Of a DNA stretch of 64,000 nucleotides, positions 130-41,907 are shown in pieces. The stretch is from Tipula vernalis (taxonomy: Eukaryota > Arthropoda > Insecta > Diptera > Tipulidae). Location: positions 20,791,653 through 20,855,652 of the forward strand of contig OY282560.1 in the NCBI GenBank assembly GCA_958295665.1, in the 5' to 3' direction. The stretch's first letter is position 1, and each line of letters opens with the position of its first letter. Under the pieces are notes generated by a model that saw only the letters and a program-made list of their open reading frames with translations, ran no database searches and was not told the origin of the DNA. The position numbers and the translations under genes were made by a program.

Positions 130-1544
130 TCAGCCACATTGGAAGGTTCGGATCACAAATGGCCAATTCAATTTATGAAGATAGTAAATAATAAATTGCT
201 TCTGTATTCGTTCAATTCTATCGATATAAATATTGTAAGCAGGATCCCAAATAATCGACACATATTCCAAATTAGACCGAACAATAGAACAATACAAAGT
301 TTTAATTGATTGTGGATTACGAAAATCTTTTGTGATACGACAAATAAAGCCAAGTAGAGAATTAGACTTAGCTACTATTAAATTAATATGGTCTCGAAAA
401 TTCAATTGATGGTCCAGGACAACACCCAAATCTTTAAATGTCATAAATCGTTCAAGCTGGTGATTACCAATAAGATATGATAAGCTCATAATCTTGCACT
501 TTTCCAAATTTAAGTTCAATTTATTCATAACTGACCATTTATACAGCAAATCAAGATCACTCTGCATTTCATTACATTGTTGCGGGCTACATACACTTCT
601 TGATATTTTCAAGTCATCTGCATATAATTCACAGTCGCAGTACTGATACAAAGAAGCAATTTCATTGATGAAGACATTAAATAATACTGGTCCTCGGTGG
701 GAGCCCTGAGGCACTCCAGAATGAACTTCAATCATCTTAGATGTAAACCCATTAGTTTGAACTACCTGCTTCCGATCACGCAGGTACGATCCAATCCAAT
801 CCAAAAACAATTTACTCACTCCAAATCTGTCCAGTTTGGCAAGAAGTAACTCAAACTGAGCTGAGTCAAATGCTTTCGCAAAATCAGTGAAAACCATACT
901 TTAGATGTTAAACTTAAAAGATTTAGTGGTAGAACGATGCCTGAAGAATCCATGTTGTTGAAGTGATAATAAAGGTTTAAGATTAAAATACAAATAATCA
1001 GAAATAGTAAGCTCAAATAATTTTGGAATTGATGATAATATAGATATGCCACGATAATTTTTAATGTTGCTCCGTTTTCCGGATTTAAAAATGGGAACCA
1101 ACGGAAATACACCACTCTTCAGAGACGCATTAAATATCAGAGATAGTGGTAATGATGGCGAGCTGTTAAGATCTTTAAGTATTTTTGCAGGTATGTTGTC
1201 TAAACCACATCCCGATTTAATCTTGAATATACCAAGGCTGACATCTTTTACTGAAATATAAGGTATTCCAATTAAATTTTGATGATGCGAACTGATTGAT
1301 AGACTGATTGGAAAAATTCAGCAAATAATTCACATATGTCCTCAGCGTTACAACCAGTTACATCATTTAACGACATCATTTGTGGATAACCAGAACATTT
1401 TCTTTTGACATCAACAAAAGGCCAAAATAGTTTTGGGTTTAAAATTAAATTATTTTCCAGCCATGAAAAATAGTTCCTATAGGCTCGGCGTTGTTCCTTA
1501 TCAAACGGCCGGCGTAGTTGTAGAAAAGTATTTAGACAATTCAA
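130..1544 (-). pseudogene. LINE ORF2: linker and reverse transcriptase
   Basis: The domain runs in three pieces, read right to left. Positions 1272-1544 encode the linker between endonuclease and RT (about 90 aa). Positions 901-1101 give the start of the RT (PIFKSGKRSNIKNYRGIS, then QHGFFRHRSTTKSF). Positions 130-897 give the catalytic core: FTDFAKAFD carries the first catalytic aspartate, GVPQGS the next conserved block, and YADD the catalytic pair. In the third block the usual GVPQGSxLGP reads GSHRGP, so a conserved leucine is replaced. A frame break lies near 900 between the finger and palm parts, and others upstream. The family assignment is secure; the copy cannot encode a full enzyme. 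Confidence 0.9.
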
Positions 1545-9924: not shown

Positions 9925-10872
9925 ATGTGGAGAGTGGTATTTCAGGACTAGATGAGACAGCTCATAATACGATTAGAAACAGACTAGTAAATATGTTGAC
10001 GAATTTTAAAACAAACAATTATTTGCGTAAAACATTTCTGAGTATTGAAGAAATCCAACAGATTTGAATGAGCACCCCGAACTGTATGTGTTGAAAGCTG
10101 ACAAAGGTAACATAACGGTACTTATGACAAAAATTGAATAGGTAGAAAAAATGGAGTTACTCTTGTCAGACAACAACAGTTAGAAAAACTTTACTAAATT
10201 TCATAAAAATTATCATGGTACGACCCCACGAATGTATGGTCTACCAAAAGTGCACAAAATTGGTATTCCTTTGAGATCAATTGTAAGCTATTTAGGTTTA
10301 CCTTTATACAATTTATCCAAATTTTTGTCTAACATTTTAAATCATTACGTGGGATATAACTTTTCGGCTGTAAAAAACGCGGAAGATTTTAAGAATAAAA
10401 TTAAAAATGTGTCTCTACCAATAAATTATATATTAGTATCATTAGATGTAGTTTCGTTGTTCACAAACGTTGACTCATCTTTGGTAATATTTTTGGTTAA
10501 AAAAATGTGGAATAGCATTAAAGGCTGTAGTAACACAAATCTAGAGTCAAAAAATTTTGTAGAAGCATTAAAATTTGTGTTAGATCATACTGAATTTAGT
10601 TTCGACGGAAGATGTTTTTGACAAGTGTTTGGTTGACCGATGGGTTAGTCCAACAATGGCAAACTTAGTAATGGTAACAAACTTAGTAACACGTTGAAAC
10701 CGAAGTGTTAAAAACATCGTCCGTCAATTGATAATTTTTTGGACTCATTTAATAGTTTTACCCCGCGAATTAAATTTACATGTGAAATTGAAAATCCAGG
10801 TCGTTTAGCCTTTCTAGATACGATGGTAATACGTAATGAGGATGGAAGTTTAACTACAGATTTATATCATAA
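9925..10872 (+). pseudogene. Penelope-like reverse transcriptase (copy 1)
   Basis: The upstream part reads TIRNRLVNMLTNFKTN and LNEHPELYVLKADKGNITVL, a block typical of Penelope N-terminal regions. The clean stretch 10232-10621 follows: MYGLPKVHKIGIPLRSIVS, the hallmark of Penelope RT, and VSLDVVSLFTNV with a catalytic aspartate. After a TGA at about 10619 the text continues as PRIKFTCEIEN, RLAFLDTMVIRNEDGSL and DLYHKKTW. The stretch that should contain the YVDD active site is missing between the last two parts, apparently by deletion around 10680-10740. These RTs are related to telomerase. This copy is inactive. Confidence 0.88.
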
Positions 10873-10910
10873 AAAAACCTGGTCGGGCTTCTATCATCTT
10901 ATACAAAAAT

Positions 10911-11560
10911 AACACAGTTTTTTTGTTAGCTGAAAAAATTTTGAGATTATTGGATGAGGTTTTTCATGCCGAAAATTTTAAAATATTAAGGGATGTTCTA
11001 ATACAAAATGGTTATCCGAGAAATGTAATTACTAGAGGTATTAAAAAGGCTATCGACAAACATAACATTTCGGAAAATATTGTGGAAAATACGCGTGAAA
11101 ATCCCAATTTAATCGGTGAAAATAATCGCAACCTTTTCATTTCGGTCCCGTATGTTAAAATTTTGTTCGAAAAAATTTAAATTCTTTTATAAAATTATGA
11201 AATACAACTTGTTGGTAGAGCATTTCAAAGTTTTGACATGGTTTTCTTCACTTTCACAATCAAATTTAATATATAAATTAAAATGTTCGTGTGGAAAAGA
11301 GTATGTGGGTCAAACTAAACAAAATTTTAAAAAACGGGTTCGTCAACATATTTACGATTCTACGTATGAGCTTAAACAGTCACACAGCGCTTTATCGAAT
11401 CATATACGTAGAAGTAATCACTTATGATTTATAGATGACGCTGAGATACTTGATAAGGAGCAAAATCTCAATAAAAGATTAATTTTGGAAAGCATTTACA
11501 TCAAAAAACATCAAAATTTGTTAAATATCCAGGAAGTTTCAAAGTATTTGTTAAATTAAT
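10911..11560 (+). pseudogene. Penelope-like GIY-YIG-type endonuclease region
   Basis: The first 85-codon frame (10923-11180) matches the linker part of Penelope proteins. The endonuclease follows in another frame: LIYKLKCSCGKEYVGQT, then FKKRVRQHIYD and LSNHIRRSNH. The YKLxCxCG...YVGQT block is the Penelope version of GIY-YIG. Past a TGA near 11425 the C-terminal tail continues (DKEQNLNKRLILESIYIKKH). In Penelope elements this domain cuts the target DNA. The frameshift at about 11170 and the stop make the copy nonfunctional. Confidence 0.85.
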
Positions 11561-14636: not shown

Positions 14637-15333
14637 AGTCTAAAAAACGAAGCTTTTATAAGGGGATTAGAAACGAGGAAAAAACCAAACTTTTCATAGT
14701 ACAACACATAAAACCTATGGGGAATTACTTGTATTCCTTAAACAAATTTTAAAATGAAAACTATACAAATTCCTAATTATGATTTCCGAAATATTTTCAA
14801 AAATATTTGAGTTTCAACATATACGAGTATTAAAAAATCTGAGCTTTTATAAGGGAATTAGAAAAGACGAAAAAACGAAACTTTTCATAGTAAATCACAC
14901 AAAACATATGGGAAATCACTTTTTTTCCTAAGATAAATTTTTAAATGAAAACGTTACAAATTCTTAATTATGATTTCCGAAACATTTTCAAAAATATTTG
15001 AGTTTCAACATATACGAGTATTATCAGAGCACCCTGTATTTTATAGAGCCACAATCAAAAAATCTGAGCTTTTATAAGGGAATTAGAAAAGACGAAAAAA
15101 CGAAACTTTTCATAGTAAATCACACAAAACATATGGGAAATCACTTTTTTTCCTAAGATAAATTTTTAAATGAAAACGTTACAAATTCTTAAATATGATT
15201 TCTAAAATACTTTCATAAATGTTTGAATTTCAACATATATGAATATCGTTTAAGTAAATCGTTTTCATTTTCTTGTAATAATTGATTTATTTAAACCAAA
15301 ATATTAAAAAATTCATAACAACAGCATTCTGGG
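14637..15333. repeat. Three tandem copies of a roughly 190-230-bp repeat
   Basis: The unit contains GAGCTTTTATAAGGGAATTA, CTTTTCATAGTA and TTTGAGTTTCAACATATACG. It occurs at about 14637-14830, 14831-15010 and 15011-15250. The third copy is preceded by GAGCACCCTGTATTTTATAG and followed by GTTTAAGTAAATCGTTTTC up to 15333. A fourth copy with the same preceding and following parts lies at 16164-16460. Confidence 0.7.
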
Positions 15334-32485: not shown

Positions 32486-33423
32486 AGTCTTTCTTGAGTT
32501 TTTTTGATTTACTGAATATAATTCGCTAAATCGGTATGTTCATACTTGAAACTATCTGTGTTAAGTAGGAATTGTATTTTTGTAGTTTGGTTGTAGCTAC
32601 CTGCTGAGTAGACCAACTTTTTCAGTACGAAACCAAACAACCCAATGAGCCCAAAAGCAACCGGTATATACACTGATCTGAAACGTTTAGCAACTGAAGA
32701 AACATTGATCTGGGGTAGTTAAACGTAGTTAGCTACTAAGTGATCTATGGTAATTCCAAAAAGATTTCAGATTATTCTTTACAAATTTCTACAATTAATT
32801 TGGTGTAAAAAGACCAAAGTATTGAAATCCTGTTAAAAATAACGAAAAAATTGGTTGATTCTAAACCATCAAACCAAACCAACCAACCAACGTTTTGAAA
32901 ACTCCTCAGTCTAAAAAGGCAAAAAATGTAAAAAAAAAATAAAAATTCCGGTCTGGATGTCCGGATGTGTGGATGTCTGTACCCACGGTATTTCGAGAAC
33001 GGCTGGTCCCATATGGAATTTTCCGATTCTATGGTCAAGGCGGAGATTTGAAAAGCTTTAGGAAACTGTACGTCAAGAGGGTGAGGTACCTGCCATACGA
33101 ATTGAACCAAAACACCTGATTATATAAAAATATTTATGAATTTTTTATATATGCTGGTTTGAGGATTGAGTTTGGTGTAGAGTTTGCAGTTGAGTTGAGG
33201 GGTAAGTTGGGTTCTCTTTGCAAGCTGCATTAGGGTTGAGTTGCGGTTTAGTTGGGGTTGGATTAGGGTTAAGTGAGCAGTTGGGTAATCTATATGCAGA
33301 GAAACCTCACTACAACGGAAATTGACGGGACCAAAAAAGTTGGCCTTTATAGAGAGGTGTCCGTTAAAATGAGGATTTGTGATTTTTTTTTTAAAACTTT
33401 TATTGGGATTCTATATCTTACCC
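32486..33423. other. AT-rich stretch with a GT-rich tract
   Basis: The tract at about 33160-33295 is strongly G/T biased on the plus strand, with irregular units such as GAGTTGAG, TTAGGGTTGAG and TTGGGGTTGGATTAGGGTT. The rest has no recognised feature. A minus-strand 112-codon frame (32772-33110) shows no domain. Confidence 0.35.
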
Positions 33424-33960
33424 GATTTTGATGAAATCCAGCATTTCCAATGGAAATGGATTTCTCAAATGATTCTTAGACAAATTCTGGAATATGGCCA
33501 AGTGTGATGGAACTTGCCTATTTCGCAACCGATTATGATGAAATTTAACATGTGCGATGGAAATGGGATTCTAAACTGATTTTTGGATAAAGTTCTGGAA
33601 TTTGGCCAATGATGACTAAACATCGCTATTTCTCAACCGATTATGGTGAAATTTGATGTGGGTGATGGAAATGGGATTCTAAAATGATTTTTAGATGAAG
33701 TTCCGGAATATGGCCAATTAGGAAGGATCTCGCCTATTTCTCGACCGATTATGATGAAATTTGACATGTGCGATGGAAATGGGGTTCTAAAATGAGTTTT
33801 AGATAAAGTTGTTGCCATAACTTCACCTAAAAATCATTTTAGAATTCCATTTTCAGCGCACAAATTCCATTTATTTTTTTTGGCCATATTCCAGAATTTT
33901 ATTCAAAATCATTTAAGAATCCCATTTCAATCATGGATGTCAAATTTCACTTAAACCGGC
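33424..33960 (+). repeat. 108-bp tandem repeat, four units, plus an inverted part
   Basis: Units begin with GATTATGATGAAATT at 33424, 33531, 33639 and 33747 (spacing 107, 108, 108) and contain GATGGAAATGGGATTCTAAA and GGAATATGGCCAA. From about 33822 to 33960 the same unit text appears inverted. A lone diverged unit lies at about 42870-42945 inside the second composite element. Confidence 0.85.
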
Positions 33961-36689: not shown

Positions 36690-39160
36690 AATGTTGGAGT
36701 CTAAACCCAATACGTGTATGCGTTGGTACATTGATTCGGGTGCTAGTGACTATATGGTGAACGATGATTCACTTTTAAGCGGATGGAAAAATTTAAACAA
36801 ACCGATTTCGATTGGTGAAAACAAAAATTGGTGTTGTTCGGAGTAAGACGGTCGTTAATCGGAAAGAGAGGCCATGTACAATCAACGATGTTTTGTTTGT
36901 GGAGAATTTGAAATGCAATTTATTTTTCGTGAGCCGAATTGAGAATGCTAGTTTTGAAGTTATGTTTATTGATGGCCGTGTGTACGTTCGTCAAAGACAG
37001 ATCGAATTGATTGTTGGAAAGCGACAAGGCCGCTTATACGAGTTTGAAATCATCGTCAATCGACAATCACTTGTTGTTTTAAATGAAGTATGTGACACCG
37101 AGAATCAAAAAAACCGGAAAGGTGAAAAATTGACTGTTTGGCGTAGTGTGACAACTACCAAATCCAGCGATGAAGCATTAGTCGGTGAATTGCATGAGAT
37201 ACAAAATAAATCAATTCAAAACATCGAATTGTGGCACATTCGTTTGGGTCATTTGAACACCAATGATATTCGGCGATTGGCATTAATTATGGACGGCATT
37301 GGAAAATCGAATTGTAATTTGACTGGAGTGTGTGAGCCCTGCGCACTCGGCAAGCAGGCGCGAATACCATTTTGGAGTCAAGGCGGAGCACGACCATCAA
37401 GAATTCTCGAGTTGATCCATACTGATATATGTGGACCTATCACACCTATAACGTTTCTTGATGATTACACACTTGTTGATTTTTCCAACATGGTTTCTGC
37501 GCAGTTCGAGCGAAAAATTTCAATATTGAGATGCGACAATGGTGCTGAATACCCATCGCATCAGTTCAAGAAATTGTGTCGTGATAAAGGTATTCGGGTT
37601 GAATACACGGCACGTTAAAATTCGGAGCAAAACAGCGTAGCAGAGATATTGAACCGAACTCTGTTGGAAACAAGTAATTTTGGCATATACCACAAATCGC
37701 AGTCCAACGCGGGCGCTAAACGTAAACAAAACGTCAGCGGAACTTTGGTACGGCAAACGACCAAATTTGTAGAGTCTTCGTGCGTGTGTTTGTATCAACA
37801 GCATATGCTTATGTTCCGGATGCTTTACGCAAGATAATAGATGATAAGTCAAAGCGGATGACCATGGCCGGATATGCAAAAAAACGGCTATCGATTGTGG
37901 GATACTGAATCGTTACGAAATCGAACGATTTAAGGATCATCAGAACTAGGCGGAGGCACCTGTCAACAATGAAGATAAACTTGATGATAATCATGACGCG
38001 AAAAGGAACAGGCCGGCAATGATGAGGCGTAGAAACGTGGTTCGGATATAGTGCTGCCACAGATAACGAATGCATCACCATCGCGACCACCGCGAGAGTA
38101 TCGTTCACCGGCTCGTTATAATGATTATGTCCGTGGATCAATTATTGATCGTATAGAGGATGAGGACAACGATGCCATGACAGTTTTTGGATTGAATGCA
38201 TTAGCATTTGTTGACGATGTTCCTCGTTCGTTTGAGGGCATTCGAGGGCGAAATAATGTTAATGAATGGCAGTGAATGCAGAAATGGACGCGCTCAAGAA
38301 AAATCAAACGTAGAAGCTGGTTGAAGTCAGTTCTAAATGGGTTTTTTCAAGAAAATGTGATGAGTTTGGACCGCCGAACAGCTACAAAGCACGTTTGGTG
38401 GCGCGACGTTTTACTTAAAAATCGGGCTTGACTTCTTTGAAACTTATTCGCCTGTGGCAATAATGGTGGTCGTGCGACTACTGTTGGCTATTGCTGTAGA
38501 ACGTGATTTGGAAATACATCAAATGGATGTCTGCACGGCTTTTCTCTACGGCTAACTTCACGAAGAAATATATATGAAACAGCCGGATGGGTTTGCACAA
38601 GGAAAATTTGTTTACAAACTCGAAAAGTCGTTATATGGGCTAAAACAAGCGTCTCGCGTCTATAGAACGAGAGGTTTCACCATTTAATGATTAGCATTGG
38701 TTTTGAGCAATCGAAATATGATCAATGTTTGTACATTCGTGGACGAAGAGATGAAGCTGTGGTCGAGCAAATTGATGAAATCAAGAGGATCATTTCGAAG
38801 GAGTTTGAAATGAAAGACATTGGTGAGATCCGTCACTTCTTGGGTATCACTATTCACCGTGACAGAGAAAACAGTATGTTACATTAAGTCAACAATCATA
38901 TTTAGAAGATGTGCTCAAACATTTCGGAATGGAAAATTGCAATGGGTTCTCAACACCCATCTAATGTAAATTGAAGCTCCATAAGACTGAGGATGCTGTG
39001 ATTACAAAGAAACAAACATATCGTGAACTGATTGGCTGTTTAATGTACACAGCGACGACTTCTTTTGTGCAGTATTCGAGTAGTACTCTGTTGACCGGAT
39101 ATGCGGATGCGTTATATGTTTCTGGTATTTAGCAATACTATTTCCTGGCCTACAAAGCAA
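36690..39160 (+). pseudogene. Copia 2 protease, integrase and reverse transcriptase
   Basis: The protease has WYIDSGASDYMV (36724 on) with an intact DSG. The GAG-pre-integrase reads LWHIRLGHLN and CEPCALGKQARIPF. The integrase keeps HTDICGPI, RCDNGAEY and SVAEILNRTL (the three acidic residues), but about 20 residues are missing between FLDDYT and FSNMVSAQF, and a TAA follows YTAR. The RT shows GLDFFETYSPVAIM, IHQMDVCTAFLYG, YMKQPDGFAQ and KSLYGLKQAS. The segment 38687-38887 then jumps from CLYIRGRRDE to IDEIKRI, so the YVDD catalytic block is deleted. Frames shift repeatedly. The RNase H is cut at 39160 by the first insertion. Confidence 0.88.
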
Positions 39161-39168
39161 CAAACGGC
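39161..39168 (+). repeat. Target-site duplication CAAACGGC (left)
   Basis: Identical to 41616-41623. Together with the element between them it interrupts the copia text WPTKQQTA, which reads on as IALSS after excision. Confidence 0.95.
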
Positions 39169-39692
39169 CAAGGCTGGGCAAATTACATTACACTGAGTAA
39201 TTAAAATACTTTTCCGAGTTACAACAAACTCAGTAATTAAAATACAAATTAAAATTAATTTCGAATGGAGTAATTAAAATACAAGTTACAATTACTTTGA
39301 ATTGTCATTTGTAATTAAAATACAAATTACAATTACTTTACATTTGTAAATTAATAAATTTGATTTGACAAAATTCATTTAGTGAAAAAACGTATCATTA
39401 GAAAAAGATTATTATGATAAGTTTAATTAGATTAAGAAAAAGATTATTATGATAATATAAGTAAAGCTGATGACTCTGGAACCAATTTTTAATAAGCCTT
39501 GTAAAAATTTAAATAATAAATTTCAAAAACTGGGGTAGTTAAAATACAAATTACAATTACTTAGAATTTAAGTAATTAAAATACAAGATACTGTTACTTG
39601 GAGAATGAGTAATTAAAATACAAATTACAAATTGTAATTTGTATTTTAATTACGTAATCCAAATACAAGTAATTCGTTACTGCCCAGCCTTG
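39169..39692. mobile_element. Left hAT-type MITE of the composite (524 bp)
   Basis: Begins CAAGGCTGGGCAAATTAC and ends TACTGCCCAGCCTTG. It carries many copies of TAATTAAAATACAAATTAC-type subterminal motifs and a 43-bp hairpin (39610-39652, 19-bp perfect stem). It differs from the right copy by two internal duplications (near 39255-39320 and 39393-39455). Its right end abuts CCTAATTA. Confidence 0.9.
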
Positions 39693-41216
39693 CCTAATTA
39701 AAAAATCCTAATCCATACGAATCGTTCGTTTAGTAAAAGTTCTACAAAATTTTATTTTTAAAATCGCACTCAACCCTTAAGGGCCAATATCGGCAATTGC
39801 CAATAATGATGACAAAGGTTTAGCTGGCACATGGAATAGGACCCTTAATTACCTAATTAAAAAACCCTAATTTATAAGAATCGTTCGTTTAGTAAAAGTT
39901 CTACAAAATTTTATTTTTGAAATCGCACTCAACCCTTAAGAGCCAATATCGGCAATTGCCAACAATGATGACAAAGGTTTGGCTAGCACTTGGAATAGGA
40001 CCCTTAATTACATAATTAAAAAACCATAATTTATAAGAATCGTTCGTTTAGTAAAAGTTCTACAAAATTTTATTTTTGAAATCACACTCAACCCTGAAGG
40101 GACAATATCGGCAATTGCCAACAATGATGACAAAGGTTTGGCTAGCACTTGGAATAGGACCCTTAATTACCTAATTAAAAAACCCTAATTTATCAGAATC
40201 GTTCGTTTAGTAAAAGTTCTACAAAATTTTATTTTTCAAATCGCACTCAACCCTTAAGGGCCAATATCGGCCATTGCCAACAATGATGACAAAGGTTTGG
40301 CAATTACATGGAATAGGACCCTTAATTACCTATTAAAAAACCCTAATTTATAAGAATCGTTCGCTTAGTAAAAGTTCTACAAAATTATATTTATGAAATC
40401 GCACTCAACTCTTAAGGGCCAATATCGGCCATTGCCAACAATGATGACAAAGGTTTGGCTAGAACATGGAATAGGCCCTTTAATTACCTAATCAAAAATT
40501 CTAATCCGTACGTATCGTTCGTTTAGTAAAAGTTCTACAAAATTATATTTTTGAAATCGCAATCAACTATTAAGGGCCAATATCAGCCATTGCCAACAAT
40601 GATGACAAAGGTTTTACACTTGGAATAGGCTCTTTAATTACCATAAGTCAAAGCACTTGAGATAGGCCATTTAATTACCTAGTCAAAAACACTAATCCAT
40701 ACGAATCGTTCATTTATTAAATGTTCTACAAAATTACATTTTTGAAATCGCACTCAACTCTCAAGGGCCAATATCGGCAATTGACAAATACGATGGCAAA
40801 GGTTTGGCTAGCACATGGAATAGGATCTAGTCATAAACCCTAATCCATACCAATCGTTCGTTTAATAAAAGTTCTACAAAATTATATTTTTGAAATCGCA
40901 CTCAACTCTCAAGGGCCAATATCGGCAATTGACAAATATGATGGCAGAGGTTTGGCCAGCACATGGAATAAGATCTAGTCATAAACCCTAATCCATACGA
41001 ATCGTTCGTTTAGTAAAAGTTCTACAAAATTTTATTTTTGAAATCGCACTCAACCCTGAAGGGCCAATATCGGCCATTGCCAACAATGATGGCAAAGGTG
41101 TGGCTAGCTCATGGAATAGGCCCCTTAATTACCTAATTAAAAAATCCTAATCCATACGAATCGTTCGTTTAGTAAAAGTTCTTTGTACAAGTATAGGACC
41201 CTTAATTACCTAATTA
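39693..41216 (+). repeat. 159-bp satellite array, about 9.5 units
   Basis: ATCGTTCGTTTAGTAAAAGT recurs at 39721, 39880, 40039, 40198, 40356, 40514, 40705, 40853, 41001 and 41160. Spacing is 158-159 for most, with one 191 and two 148. Each unit has AAATCGCACTCAACCCTTAA, GGCCAATATCGG, CAACAATGATGACAAAGG and, in most units, CCTAATTA. The last unit is shortened. There is no coding frame. Confidence 0.95.
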
Positions 41217-41615
41217 CAATGCTGGGTAAATTACATTTCACTGAGTAATTAAAATGCTTTTCCGAGTTACAGCAAACTCAGTAATTAAAATACAAATTAC
41301 AATTACTTTACATTTGTAAATTGTTAAAATTGATTTGACAAAATTCATTTAGTGAAAAAACGAAAAAGATTATTAAGATTAGCTTTTATGCTGATTACTC
41401 TGGAACCAAATTTTAATAAGCCTTGAAAAATGTAAATAAGAAATTTCAAAAACTGGGGTAATTAAAATACAAATTACAATTACTTAGAATTTAAGTAACT
41501 AAAATACAAGATACTGTTACTTAAAGAATGAGTAATTAAAATACAAATTACAAATTGTAATTTGTATTTTAATTACGTAATTCAAATACATGTAATTCGT
41601 TACTGCCCAGCCTTG
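41217..41615. mobile_element. Right hAT-type MITE of the composite (399 bp)
   Basis: Same family and orientation as 39169-39692. Its inner (left) end reads CAATGCTGGGTA, with two changes from the active-looking outer end. Its outer (right) end is intact. It holds the same 43-bp hairpin (41533-41575). The inner end is preceded by CCTAATTA at 41209-41216. Confidence 0.9.
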
Positions 41616-41623
41616 CAAACGGC

Positions 41624-41907
41624 CATAGCATTATCGTAGGCAGGATACGTTTCGTTGAATTCTGCAGTATGTGAAGCGATTTGGCTTCGAGGTAAACCAA
41701 CGGTCATCTCGAAGGGAATCTCACAGACTCAAGCACATTGATATTCGATATCATTTTCTGCGTAATATAATCGCTCGGGGAGATATCGAAGTGAAATACA
41801 TCAACACCAAAGAGCAGCTTGCAAATATCATGACGAAGGGTTTACCAGCTGCTACCTACAGAAAACACATTGCGAACGAAATTGGGATTGATTTGACCTG
41901 CGCTTAA
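41624..41907 (+). pseudogene. Copia 2 RNase H, C-terminal part
   Basis: It continues from the text before the insertion: IALSS, a TAG, then AGYVSLNSAVCEAIWLRG. It then follows in 41671-41907 with RLKHIDIRYHFLRNIIARGD, VKYINTKEQLANIMTKGLP and a stop at about 41905. The MKHIDIxYHF and TKEQLADIxTKxL blocks are the usual end of copia RNase H. The DNQS block before them is missing. A polypurine stretch (GATCGAGGCGGAG) precedes the 3' LTR. Confidence 0.88.

What the first reader, a model, noticed from the sequence alone, without database searches (positions are those of the whole stretch)
39169..41615. Composite hAT element that appears to have transposed a block of satellite DNA
Two direct copies of one small hAT-type element (524 and 399 bp) flank about 1.5 kb of a 159-bp tandem repeat. 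The perfect 8-bp duplication CAAACGGC is at the outermost ends only, and excision restores the copia RNase H frame. The inner ends abut CCTAATTA (39693-39700 and 41209-41216), an 8-bp motif found inside the satellite units. The simplest reading is that the small element sat in a satellite array at CCTAATTA, was present twice in that array, and the outer ends of two copies were then used together to move the block. That gives a mechanism for seeding satellites at new places. The inner end of the right copy is mutated (CAATGCTGGGTA) and the outer ends are intact, which fits.
Basis: partly seen in the sequence, partly recalled or inferred. Interest (0 to 1): 0.88.

Follow-up and report, generated by a model that had tools for sequence, protein, structure and literature searches.

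The report
Jumping gene that carries satellite DNA
A pair of small transposons flanking a block of satellite DNA behaves as a single jumping element, is found at many places in this genome with satellite blocks of very different length, and at some places seems to have lost one end and left the satellite behind, which gives a concrete route for satellite DNA to reach new sites.

Summary
In detail: two direct copies of a hAT-like MITE (L 39169-39692, R 41217-41615) flank 1,524 bp of a 159-bp satellite, with one perfect 8-bp duplication at the outer ends. The window's own genome shows that this is one member of a dispersed family with fixed inner junctions: exact left junction 101 times, exact right junction 111 times. 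Of 32 elements read at both ends, 27 have perfect outer duplications, 3 have 7/8, 2 none. Read arrays span 329 bp to 18.5 kb. Two loci with unrelated flanks and different duplications agree at 1806 of 1808 bases, array included, so the block moves as a unit. R's inner end is CAAT, not CAAG, in 41 of 41 readable copies; L keeps both ends. In 5 of 35 satellite-selected arrays L is precisely missing, 7 bp of the duplication abutting the satellite, as if L had excised and stranded the array. Best filed as a hAT-like macrotransposon carrying satellite, a new variant of known kinds. No transposase was identified: that search did not complete.

The parts
39161..39168 (+). left outer target-site duplication CAAACGGC
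39169..39692 (+). left MITE module L (hAT-like, 524 bp), both terminal inverted repeats intact
   Evidence: in the family 37 of 40 L outer ends and 39 of 44 L inner ends intact
39169..39180 (+). outer left end CAAGGCTGGGCA
39681..39692 (+). inner right end of L, TGCCCAGCCTTG
39693..41216 (+). satellite core, about 9-10 units of 159 bp, beginning and ending with CCTAATTA
41217..41615 (+). right MITE module R (399 bp), direct orientation to L, with the 78-bp internal deletion seen in 20 of 21 aligned R copies
41217..41228 (+). inner left end of R, changed: CAATGCTGGGTA; 4th base T in 41 of 41 readable family copies
41604..41615 (+). outer right end TGCCCAGCCTTG
41616..41623 (+). right outer target-site duplication CAAACGGC
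38666..41907 (+). decayed copia-like coding region used as the target (interrupted by the element)
   Evidence: open frames 38666-38887 and 41659-41907; joined-flank frame; 28 relatives continuous across the site

Best explanation
A non-autonomous hAT-like macrotransposon. Two MITEs in direct orientation enclose a satellite array, and a hAT transposase supplied in trans uses the outermost ends (left end of L, right end of R) to move the block as one piece, making one 8-bp duplication (movement of the block SHOWN by outer duplications at many sites, by two near-identical copies in unrelated flanks and by co-inherited markers; the transposase INFERRED). A near-fixed change at the inner end of R (CAAG to CAAT) should stop R from leaving alone and so keeps R tied to the array (change SHOWN, effect INFERRED). 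The array lengthens and shortens between and after moves (length variation SHOWN; unequal exchange INFERRED). L keeps two good ends and can leave by itself, stranding the array and R at the target (footprint-like scars SHOWN at 5 loci; excision INFERRED). Origin: two MITE copies at the same phase of an older satellite array, then joint use of the outer ends (INFERRED).
For: Of the 40 scored MITE loci (40 of 1,033 candidates), 30 including the window are L followed by the satellite and 10 are solo MITEs. Of the 30, 22 were read at both ends: 19 perfect 8/8 outer duplications, 2 with 7/8, 1 with 4 mismatches. From an independent satellite query (35 of 1,876 candidates scored, 35 loci), 10 more were read at both ends: 8 perfect, 1 with 7/8, 1 none. 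101 exact left and 111 exact right inner junctions, reversed-pattern controls 0; 57 of the 100 listed left junctions pair on the same strand within 30 kb with one of 97 right junctions used, against 0.14 on average by random placement. C4_3.60/C2_306.15 (L024/L025): 1806/1808 identical, no gaps, duplications GCACCAAT and GCTATAGC. A 19,351-bp member with an 18,479-bp array has a perfect TAAGTAGT duplication. Markers absent from all 10 solos are inherited together across the block: of 21 composites compared, all 11 with 60G in the outer part of L also have 423T in the outer part of R (one further composite has 423T without 60G). Inner end of R intact in 0 of 41, against 37 of 40 (L outer), 39 of 44 (L inner), 38 of 45 (R outer). 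Five L-loss scars. Target continuous in 28 copia relatives.
Against: No transposase or autonomous partner was seen; the PF05699 search was sent ten times and never answered. Only 57 of 100 listed left junctions pair exactly; why the rest do not was not examined. 7 of 35 satellite-selected arrays lack L without a scar, and 3 of these show no R within about 700 bp, the array ending in mid-unit. Three of the 22 fully read loci (and a fourth read on one side) share one insertion site and flanks, so they count as one event. The outer part of R is on average no closer to other R copies (0.0272) than to solos (0.0239), and distance comparisons between pieces of the block are uneven (L-outer/R-inner r 0.51, p 0.009; R-inner/R-outer 0.48, p 0.0095; L-outer/L-inner 0.39, p 0.03; L-outer/R-outer 0.31, p 0.06; L-inner/R-inner 0.29, p 0.08; L-inner/R-outer -0.09, p 0.66). 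Of the five scars only one carries a terminal complement base that the satellite cannot itself supply, and one has none. MITE-selected loci are chosen for a good L, and the satellite sample is the best-matching one, so diverged or very long free arrays could be missed.
Confidence: 0.9

Rival explanations
1. Recombination model: each locus first received a solo MITE with its own duplication, and a circle or array holding a MITE plus satellite then recombined into it, giving MITE-satellite-MITE with an outer duplication but no transposition of the block.
For: It also gives one outer duplication, fixed inner junctions and variable array length, and solo MITEs exist (9 of 10 with perfect duplications, 1 with 7/8). 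The larger markers fit it: the 78-bp deletion is only in R (20 of 21) and lies in its inner half, the 29-bp deletion is in the inner half of the 26 short-type L and in 2 of 21 R, neither is in any of 10 solos, and R's 354del/361G also occur in 4 of 10 solos. The outer part of R is no closer to other R than to solos.
Against: C4_3.60 and C2_306.15 are identical in the outer parts as well as the core. Small markers in the outer parts, which this model derives from resident solos, are absent from all 10 solos and linked to each other: 60G in outer L (15 of 26 short-type L) and 423T in outer R (12 of 21), together in 11 of 11 composites with 60G that have both modules aligned. It may still describe how the founder composite arose.
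Confidence: 0.06
2. The array grew in place inside a single MITE, as in MITEs with internal tandem repeats.
For: Known MITEs carry a tandem core (review PMC12628747, passages).
Against: Each flank here is a whole MITE with its own two ends, not half of one, and the satellite query gave no match at E 1e-5 in the five loci of solo MITEs first fetched.
Confidence: 0.02
3. Today's copies were spread by segmental duplication after one old block movement.
For: Four loci do share flanks and an insertion site.
Against: Among the 22 fully read copies, only the three sharing that site had flanks at 70% or more of 150 bases matching; most of the others have their own duplications.
Confidence: 0.02
4. On the sub-claim of L excision: the five scars are deletions or one-ended insertions.
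For: Left ends of some other arrays are ragged truncations (C2:372.8, C3:99.11, C4:12.2).
Against: All five keep exactly the first 7 bp of the right-hand duplication and resume the satellite within its first 6 bases; the other four arrays tested share at most 3 bases.
Confidence: 0.2

Closest known systems
Ac/Ds macrotransposons of maize (hAT)
   Same: Nearby hAT copies whose outer ends act jointly; excision of a 28-kb block with an 8-bp footprint and reinsertion of a 10.3-kb block (PMC9910405, passages read).
   Different: Those are traced alleles carrying gene-regulatory DNA. Here a non-autonomous composite has become a dispersed family, the cargo is a satellite array of variable length, and one inner end is near-fixed in a changed state.
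Cg_HINE / Helentron satellite carriers of the Pacific oyster
   Same: Non-autonomous DNA elements that carry and disperse satellite-like arrays (PMC7492417, passages).
   Different: Helentrons make no target duplication and have one left and one right module; longest array there 29 monomers. Here 8-bp duplications, two whole MITEs as ends, up to about 120 units.
miDNA4 and Xstir MITEs of Xenopus
   Same: MITEs with satellite arrays of variable copy number; for miDNA4 capture of a pre-existing tandem repeat is proposed (review PMC12628747, passages; original papers not read).
   Different: Array inside one MITE, Tc1/mariner type for miDNA4; here between two complete hAT-like MITEs.
Tetris foldback element of Drosophila virilis
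   Same: DNA transposon feeding satellite growth, repeat number differing between alleles, arrays up to 66 copies (PMC4079207, passages).
   Different: Repeats lie in long inverted ends, and satellite growth is proposed through disruption of the element, not through loss of one end module.
P-element MITE AgaP2-P12 of Anopheles gambiae
   Same: Authors propose macrotransposition of two neighbouring copies as an origin of a MITE (PMC1562414, passages).
   Different: One hybrid MITE; no satellite cargo in the passages read.
Tandem hAT MITEs at Atlantic cod inversion breakpoints
   Same: hAT MITEs associated with 167-169 bp tandem units (PMC12368964, passages).
   Different: There the repeats form the long inverted ends; no composite with a separate satellite core and outer duplication is described in the passages read.

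Membership tests
hAT superfamily (non-autonomous) | 8-bp target-site duplication | tested here: met
   27 of 32 composites read at both ends perfect, 3 with 7/8, 2 without; 9 of 10 solo MITEs perfect, 1 with 7/8. P elements also make 8-bp duplications (PMC1562414, passages), so this alone is not proof
hAT superfamily (non-autonomous) | short terminal inverted repeats of a hAT-like motif (motif recalled, from no call) | tested here: met
   CAAGGCTGGGCA / TGCCCAGCCTTG at outer ends, 37 of 40 and 38 of 45 intact
hAT superfamily (non-autonomous) | mobilised by a hAT transposase with matching ends in the same genome | not tested
   PF05699 search did not complete
hAT superfamily (non-autonomous) | excision scars centred on the complement of the base next to the element | tested here: inconclusive
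   5 scars; 4 of 5 have the complement base next, but only C2:411.53M cannot be explained by satellite letters, and C3:6.11M has none (rule from PMC5873905, passages)
MITE | short, non-coding, two inverted ends, many copies | tested here: met
   524 and 399 bp here; no open frame of 70 aa or more overlaps L or R; 40 of 1,033 candidates scored, all 40 matching
Macrotransposon / composite transposon | two element copies and the DNA between them moved by the outermost ends, one outer duplication | tested here: met
Macrotransposon / composite transposon | excision of the whole block | not testable with these tools
   needs sister alleles or populations
Helentron/HINE satellite carrier | no target duplication | tested here: not met
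   8-bp duplications
Classical satellite DNA | long free arrays, usually heterochromatic | tested here: inconclusive
   of 35 arrays 23 have L, 5 an L-loss scar, 7 neither; chromosomal context not examined

The most novel reading that the evidence does not exclude
Deliver and leave: a hAT-like composite inserts a satellite array at a new site, and its left MITE, which alone keeps two working ends, then excises and strands the array as immobile satellite. A single inner-end change that stops the right MITE from leaving turned a chance macrotransposon into a heritable satellite-dispersal element; rare places with the unchanged inner end (2 of 100 listed right junctions; one read, L105) are remnants of the earlier state.
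Probability: 0.65. Interest if true: 0.8.

Novelty: new variant of a known kind. Interest (0 to 1): 0.72.

Why it matters
How satellite arrays reach new, dispersed places is an old question, and many proposals rest on the proximity of transposons and satellites. Here the carrier, the cargo, the outer duplication, near-identical recent copies, and arrays apparently stranded after loss of one end can all be read in one assembly with chromosome-size contigs, so each step can be tested by long reads across individuals and by a transposition assay.

Tried and rejected
The viral collection held no exact copy of a 32-base satellite stretch. The protein search with the window's RT fragment gave RT relatives, the hits named with a species being insects; the species of the window was not identified. 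I considered and disfavoured an array grown inside one MITE, entry by recombination with circles, misassembly and spread by segmental duplication.

Corrections to my own earlier figures: the notebook gives 20 of 23 for outer duplications; the table gives 19 of 22. The notebook says that the markers contradict the recombination model; the recount shows that the larger markers fit that model and that 354del/361G also occur in 4 of 10 solos. The case against the model now rests and on the linked outer markers. Rows dropped: solo s023 was left out of the solo group and of the mean distances; modules of 300 bp or less were left out of the tree; 4 of 45 R copies had no readable inner end or did not fit the junction pattern used, that pattern admitted only T or G as fourth base for the satellite-selected copies, and four ends were entered there by hand from the readings; three listed right junctions (two G, one C) were left out of the pairing.

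Within-array unit identity does not clearly exceed between-array identity in most of the 21 arrays compared, except the 18.5-kb one (0.945 against 0.910) and slightly two others; only the first 30 units of each array were used. The hAT transposase search (PF05699) was sent ten times and never answered. Literature: no paper describing a hAT composite with a separate satellite core was seen in the listings (two returned none); this covers only the open-licence library and the terms used.

Full report
Check of the observation. L is 39169-39692, the satellite 39693-41216 and R 41217-41615, with CAAACGGC at both outer ends and CCTAATTA at both inner ends. TRF gives a 159-bp period with 9.3 copies. 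L and R are direct repeats and align end to end, with the larger differences in gaps. R's inner end reads CAATGCTGGGTA. With the two flanks joined over one CAAACGGC, one frame runs through the site as NTISWPTKQQTA/IALS, although this copia-like copy has stops elsewhere. A search with those joined 266 bases found 28 other loci, 67-87% identical, that cross the junction in one alignment with a genomic span at most 52 bp longer than the query span (37 of 37 candidates scored). The target was an ordinary copia-like sequence, and these are paralogues of the site, not alleles.

The same structure elsewhere. The window lies on a 371-Mb contig of a 1.27-Gb assembly whose three largest contigs seen here are 464, 412 and 371 Mb. 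With L as query, 40 of 1,033 candidates were scored. Fetching them showed 10 solo MITEs, 9 with perfect 8-bp duplications and 1 with 7/8, and 30 places, the window included, where L is followed at once by the satellite. In 22 of the 30 both ends were read: 19 have perfect outer duplications, 2 have 7 of 8, and 1 (C3_329.32) does not match. That one shares its flanks with C3_334.37 and C1_4.89 and its left flank with C1_411.1, so these four are most simply one insertion copied together with its surroundings. Their array lengths differ (12, 25, 8 and at least 15 units), which suggests that arrays change length in place.

Array length in the fully read elements runs from 329 bp (C2_390.5) to 18,479 bp (C3_32.29, a 19,351-bp element with a perfect TAAGTAGT duplication). 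Two elements, on C4 and C2, agree at 1806 of 1808 positions without a gap through L, six units and R, lie in unrelated flanks and have different perfect duplications. The block therefore moved as one piece and recently.

An independent view from the satellite. Using the array as query, 35 of 1,876 candidates were scored, at 35 array loci. Nine of these were already known from the MITE query to begin with L. For the other 26 the ends were read (20; 6). L is present at 14 of the 26 (23 of 35 in all) and R at 23 of the 26, one of them only in part. Ten of the 26 were read through both outer ends: 8 perfect duplications, 1 with 7/8, 1 none. Together this gives 27 perfect of 32, 3 with 7/8, 2 without.

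Loss of L alone. Of the 12 arrays without L, nine have a readable outer flank of R. In five of the nine (C2:411.53M, C2:384.75M, C3:3.35M, C3:6.11M, C1:49.67M) exactly the first 7 bases of the right-hand duplication stand directly before the satellite, which resumes within its first six bases (in C2:411.53M with one base between); the other four share at most 3 bases. This is what excision of L by its own two ends would leave. For Ac/Ds, footprints are described as deletions and short palindromic insertions centred on the complement of the base next to the element (PMC5873905, passages). In four of the five the next base is that complement, but in three of those four the satellite could have supplied the same letter; only C2:411.53M (C to G) cannot be explained so, and C3:6.11M has no complement base. 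In the three arrays of the 26 that lack R the satellite stops in mid-unit, so no precise loss of R was seen among the 26.

Why L could leave and R could not. Over the copies read, the outer end of L is intact in 37 of 40, the inner end of L in 39 of 44, the outer end of R in 38 of 45, and the inner end of R in 0 of 41, where the fourth base is T in 41 of 41; four of the 45 R copies had no readable inner end or did not fit the pattern used. Genome-wide the exact right junction with any fourth base occurs 111 times; of the 100 listed places 96 have T, 2 have G and 2 have C. One of the two G places was read: satellite, CCTAATTA, a MITE with intact ends and without R's 78-bp deletion, then DNA that is neither satellite nor MITE. 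It looks like the state before the change. That the change matters for function is inference.

Counts. The exact left junction occurs 101 times and the exact right junction 111 times; the reversed patterns give 0. Of the 100 listed left junctions, 57 pair with one of 97 listed right junctions used (the two G places and one C place were left out) on the same strand within 30 kb; 200 random placements gave 0.14 on average, at most 2. Median array 1,542 bp, largest 7,549 bp except one pairing of 21,570 bp that was not read.

Ancestry of the modules, and the recombination rival. In a tree without support values looked at, 19 of 21 R copies lie together (C1_118.58 and C3_210.9 do not), and L copies lie among the solo MITEs. 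The 26 short-type L share a 29-bp deletion that no solo (0 of 10) and 2 of 21 R have; 20 of 21 R share a 78-bp deletion that no L or solo has; 354del and 361G, in 18 of 21 R, also occur in 4 of 10 solos. These larger markers alone would fit a model in which a MITE-bearing circle recombined into resident solo MITEs, because they lie in the inner halves. Two smaller markers speak against it. 60G lies in the outer part of L (15 of 26 short-type L), 423T in the outer part of R (12 of 21), neither is in any of 10 solos, and among 21 composites with both modules aligned all 11 with 60G have 423T, while one more has 423T without 60G. Composites at different target sites thus share derived letters at both outer parts, as expected if the block is copied whole; three of these 12 share one site. 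Distance comparisons between pieces are uneven: three of six pairs correlate at p below 0.05, three do not, and the outer part of R is on average no closer to other R (0.0272) than to solos (0.0239). The 1806/1808 pair is the stronger evidence. Satellite units are about as similar between arrays as within them in most of 21 arrays, except clearly in the 18.5-kb array.

Comparison with what is known. It works like the Ac/Ds macrotransposons of maize (PMC9910405, passages) and, as a carrier of satellite, like Helentron elements of the oyster (PMC7492417, passages), MITEs of Xenopus (review PMC12628747, passages) and Tetris (PMC4079207, passages). It differs from each in combining two whole hAT-like MITEs, a separate satellite core of very variable length, a near-fixed inner-end change and apparently stranded arrays. 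Nothing of this combination was seen in the listings. Membership in hAT rests on the duplication and the ends; whether a matching transposase exists is untested because that search did not complete.

Verdict.

Noticed in passing
window 33411-33810; L029 right flank: A second tandem repeat (108-bp period, 3.7 copies); related repeats lie in the right flank of the composites that share one insertion site.
   Followed up: partly
G000:C1:431265803 and C1:431267050: Two exact left junctions 1.25 kb apart on one strand, possibly a doubled or nested composite.
   Followed up: no
G000:C1:83498409 to 83519980: A left and a right junction 21.6 kb apart, possibly the longest array of the family, not read.
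   Followed up: no
window 14651-15246: Tandem repeat of 191/225 bp, about two copies.
   Followed up: no
window 10184-11427: Open frames that look, from recall, like a Penelope-type element; not tested.
   Followed up: no
window 130-897: Reverse transcriptase fragment (PF00078), non-LTR type by look; a relative 91% identical over 42% of it sits on a 752-bp public contig (source 'ena').
   Followed up: partly
L012 and L011 (C3:32.27-32.29 Mb): The 18.5-kb array shows recurring length patterns of neighbouring units, suggesting block-wise local amplification.
   Followed up: partly
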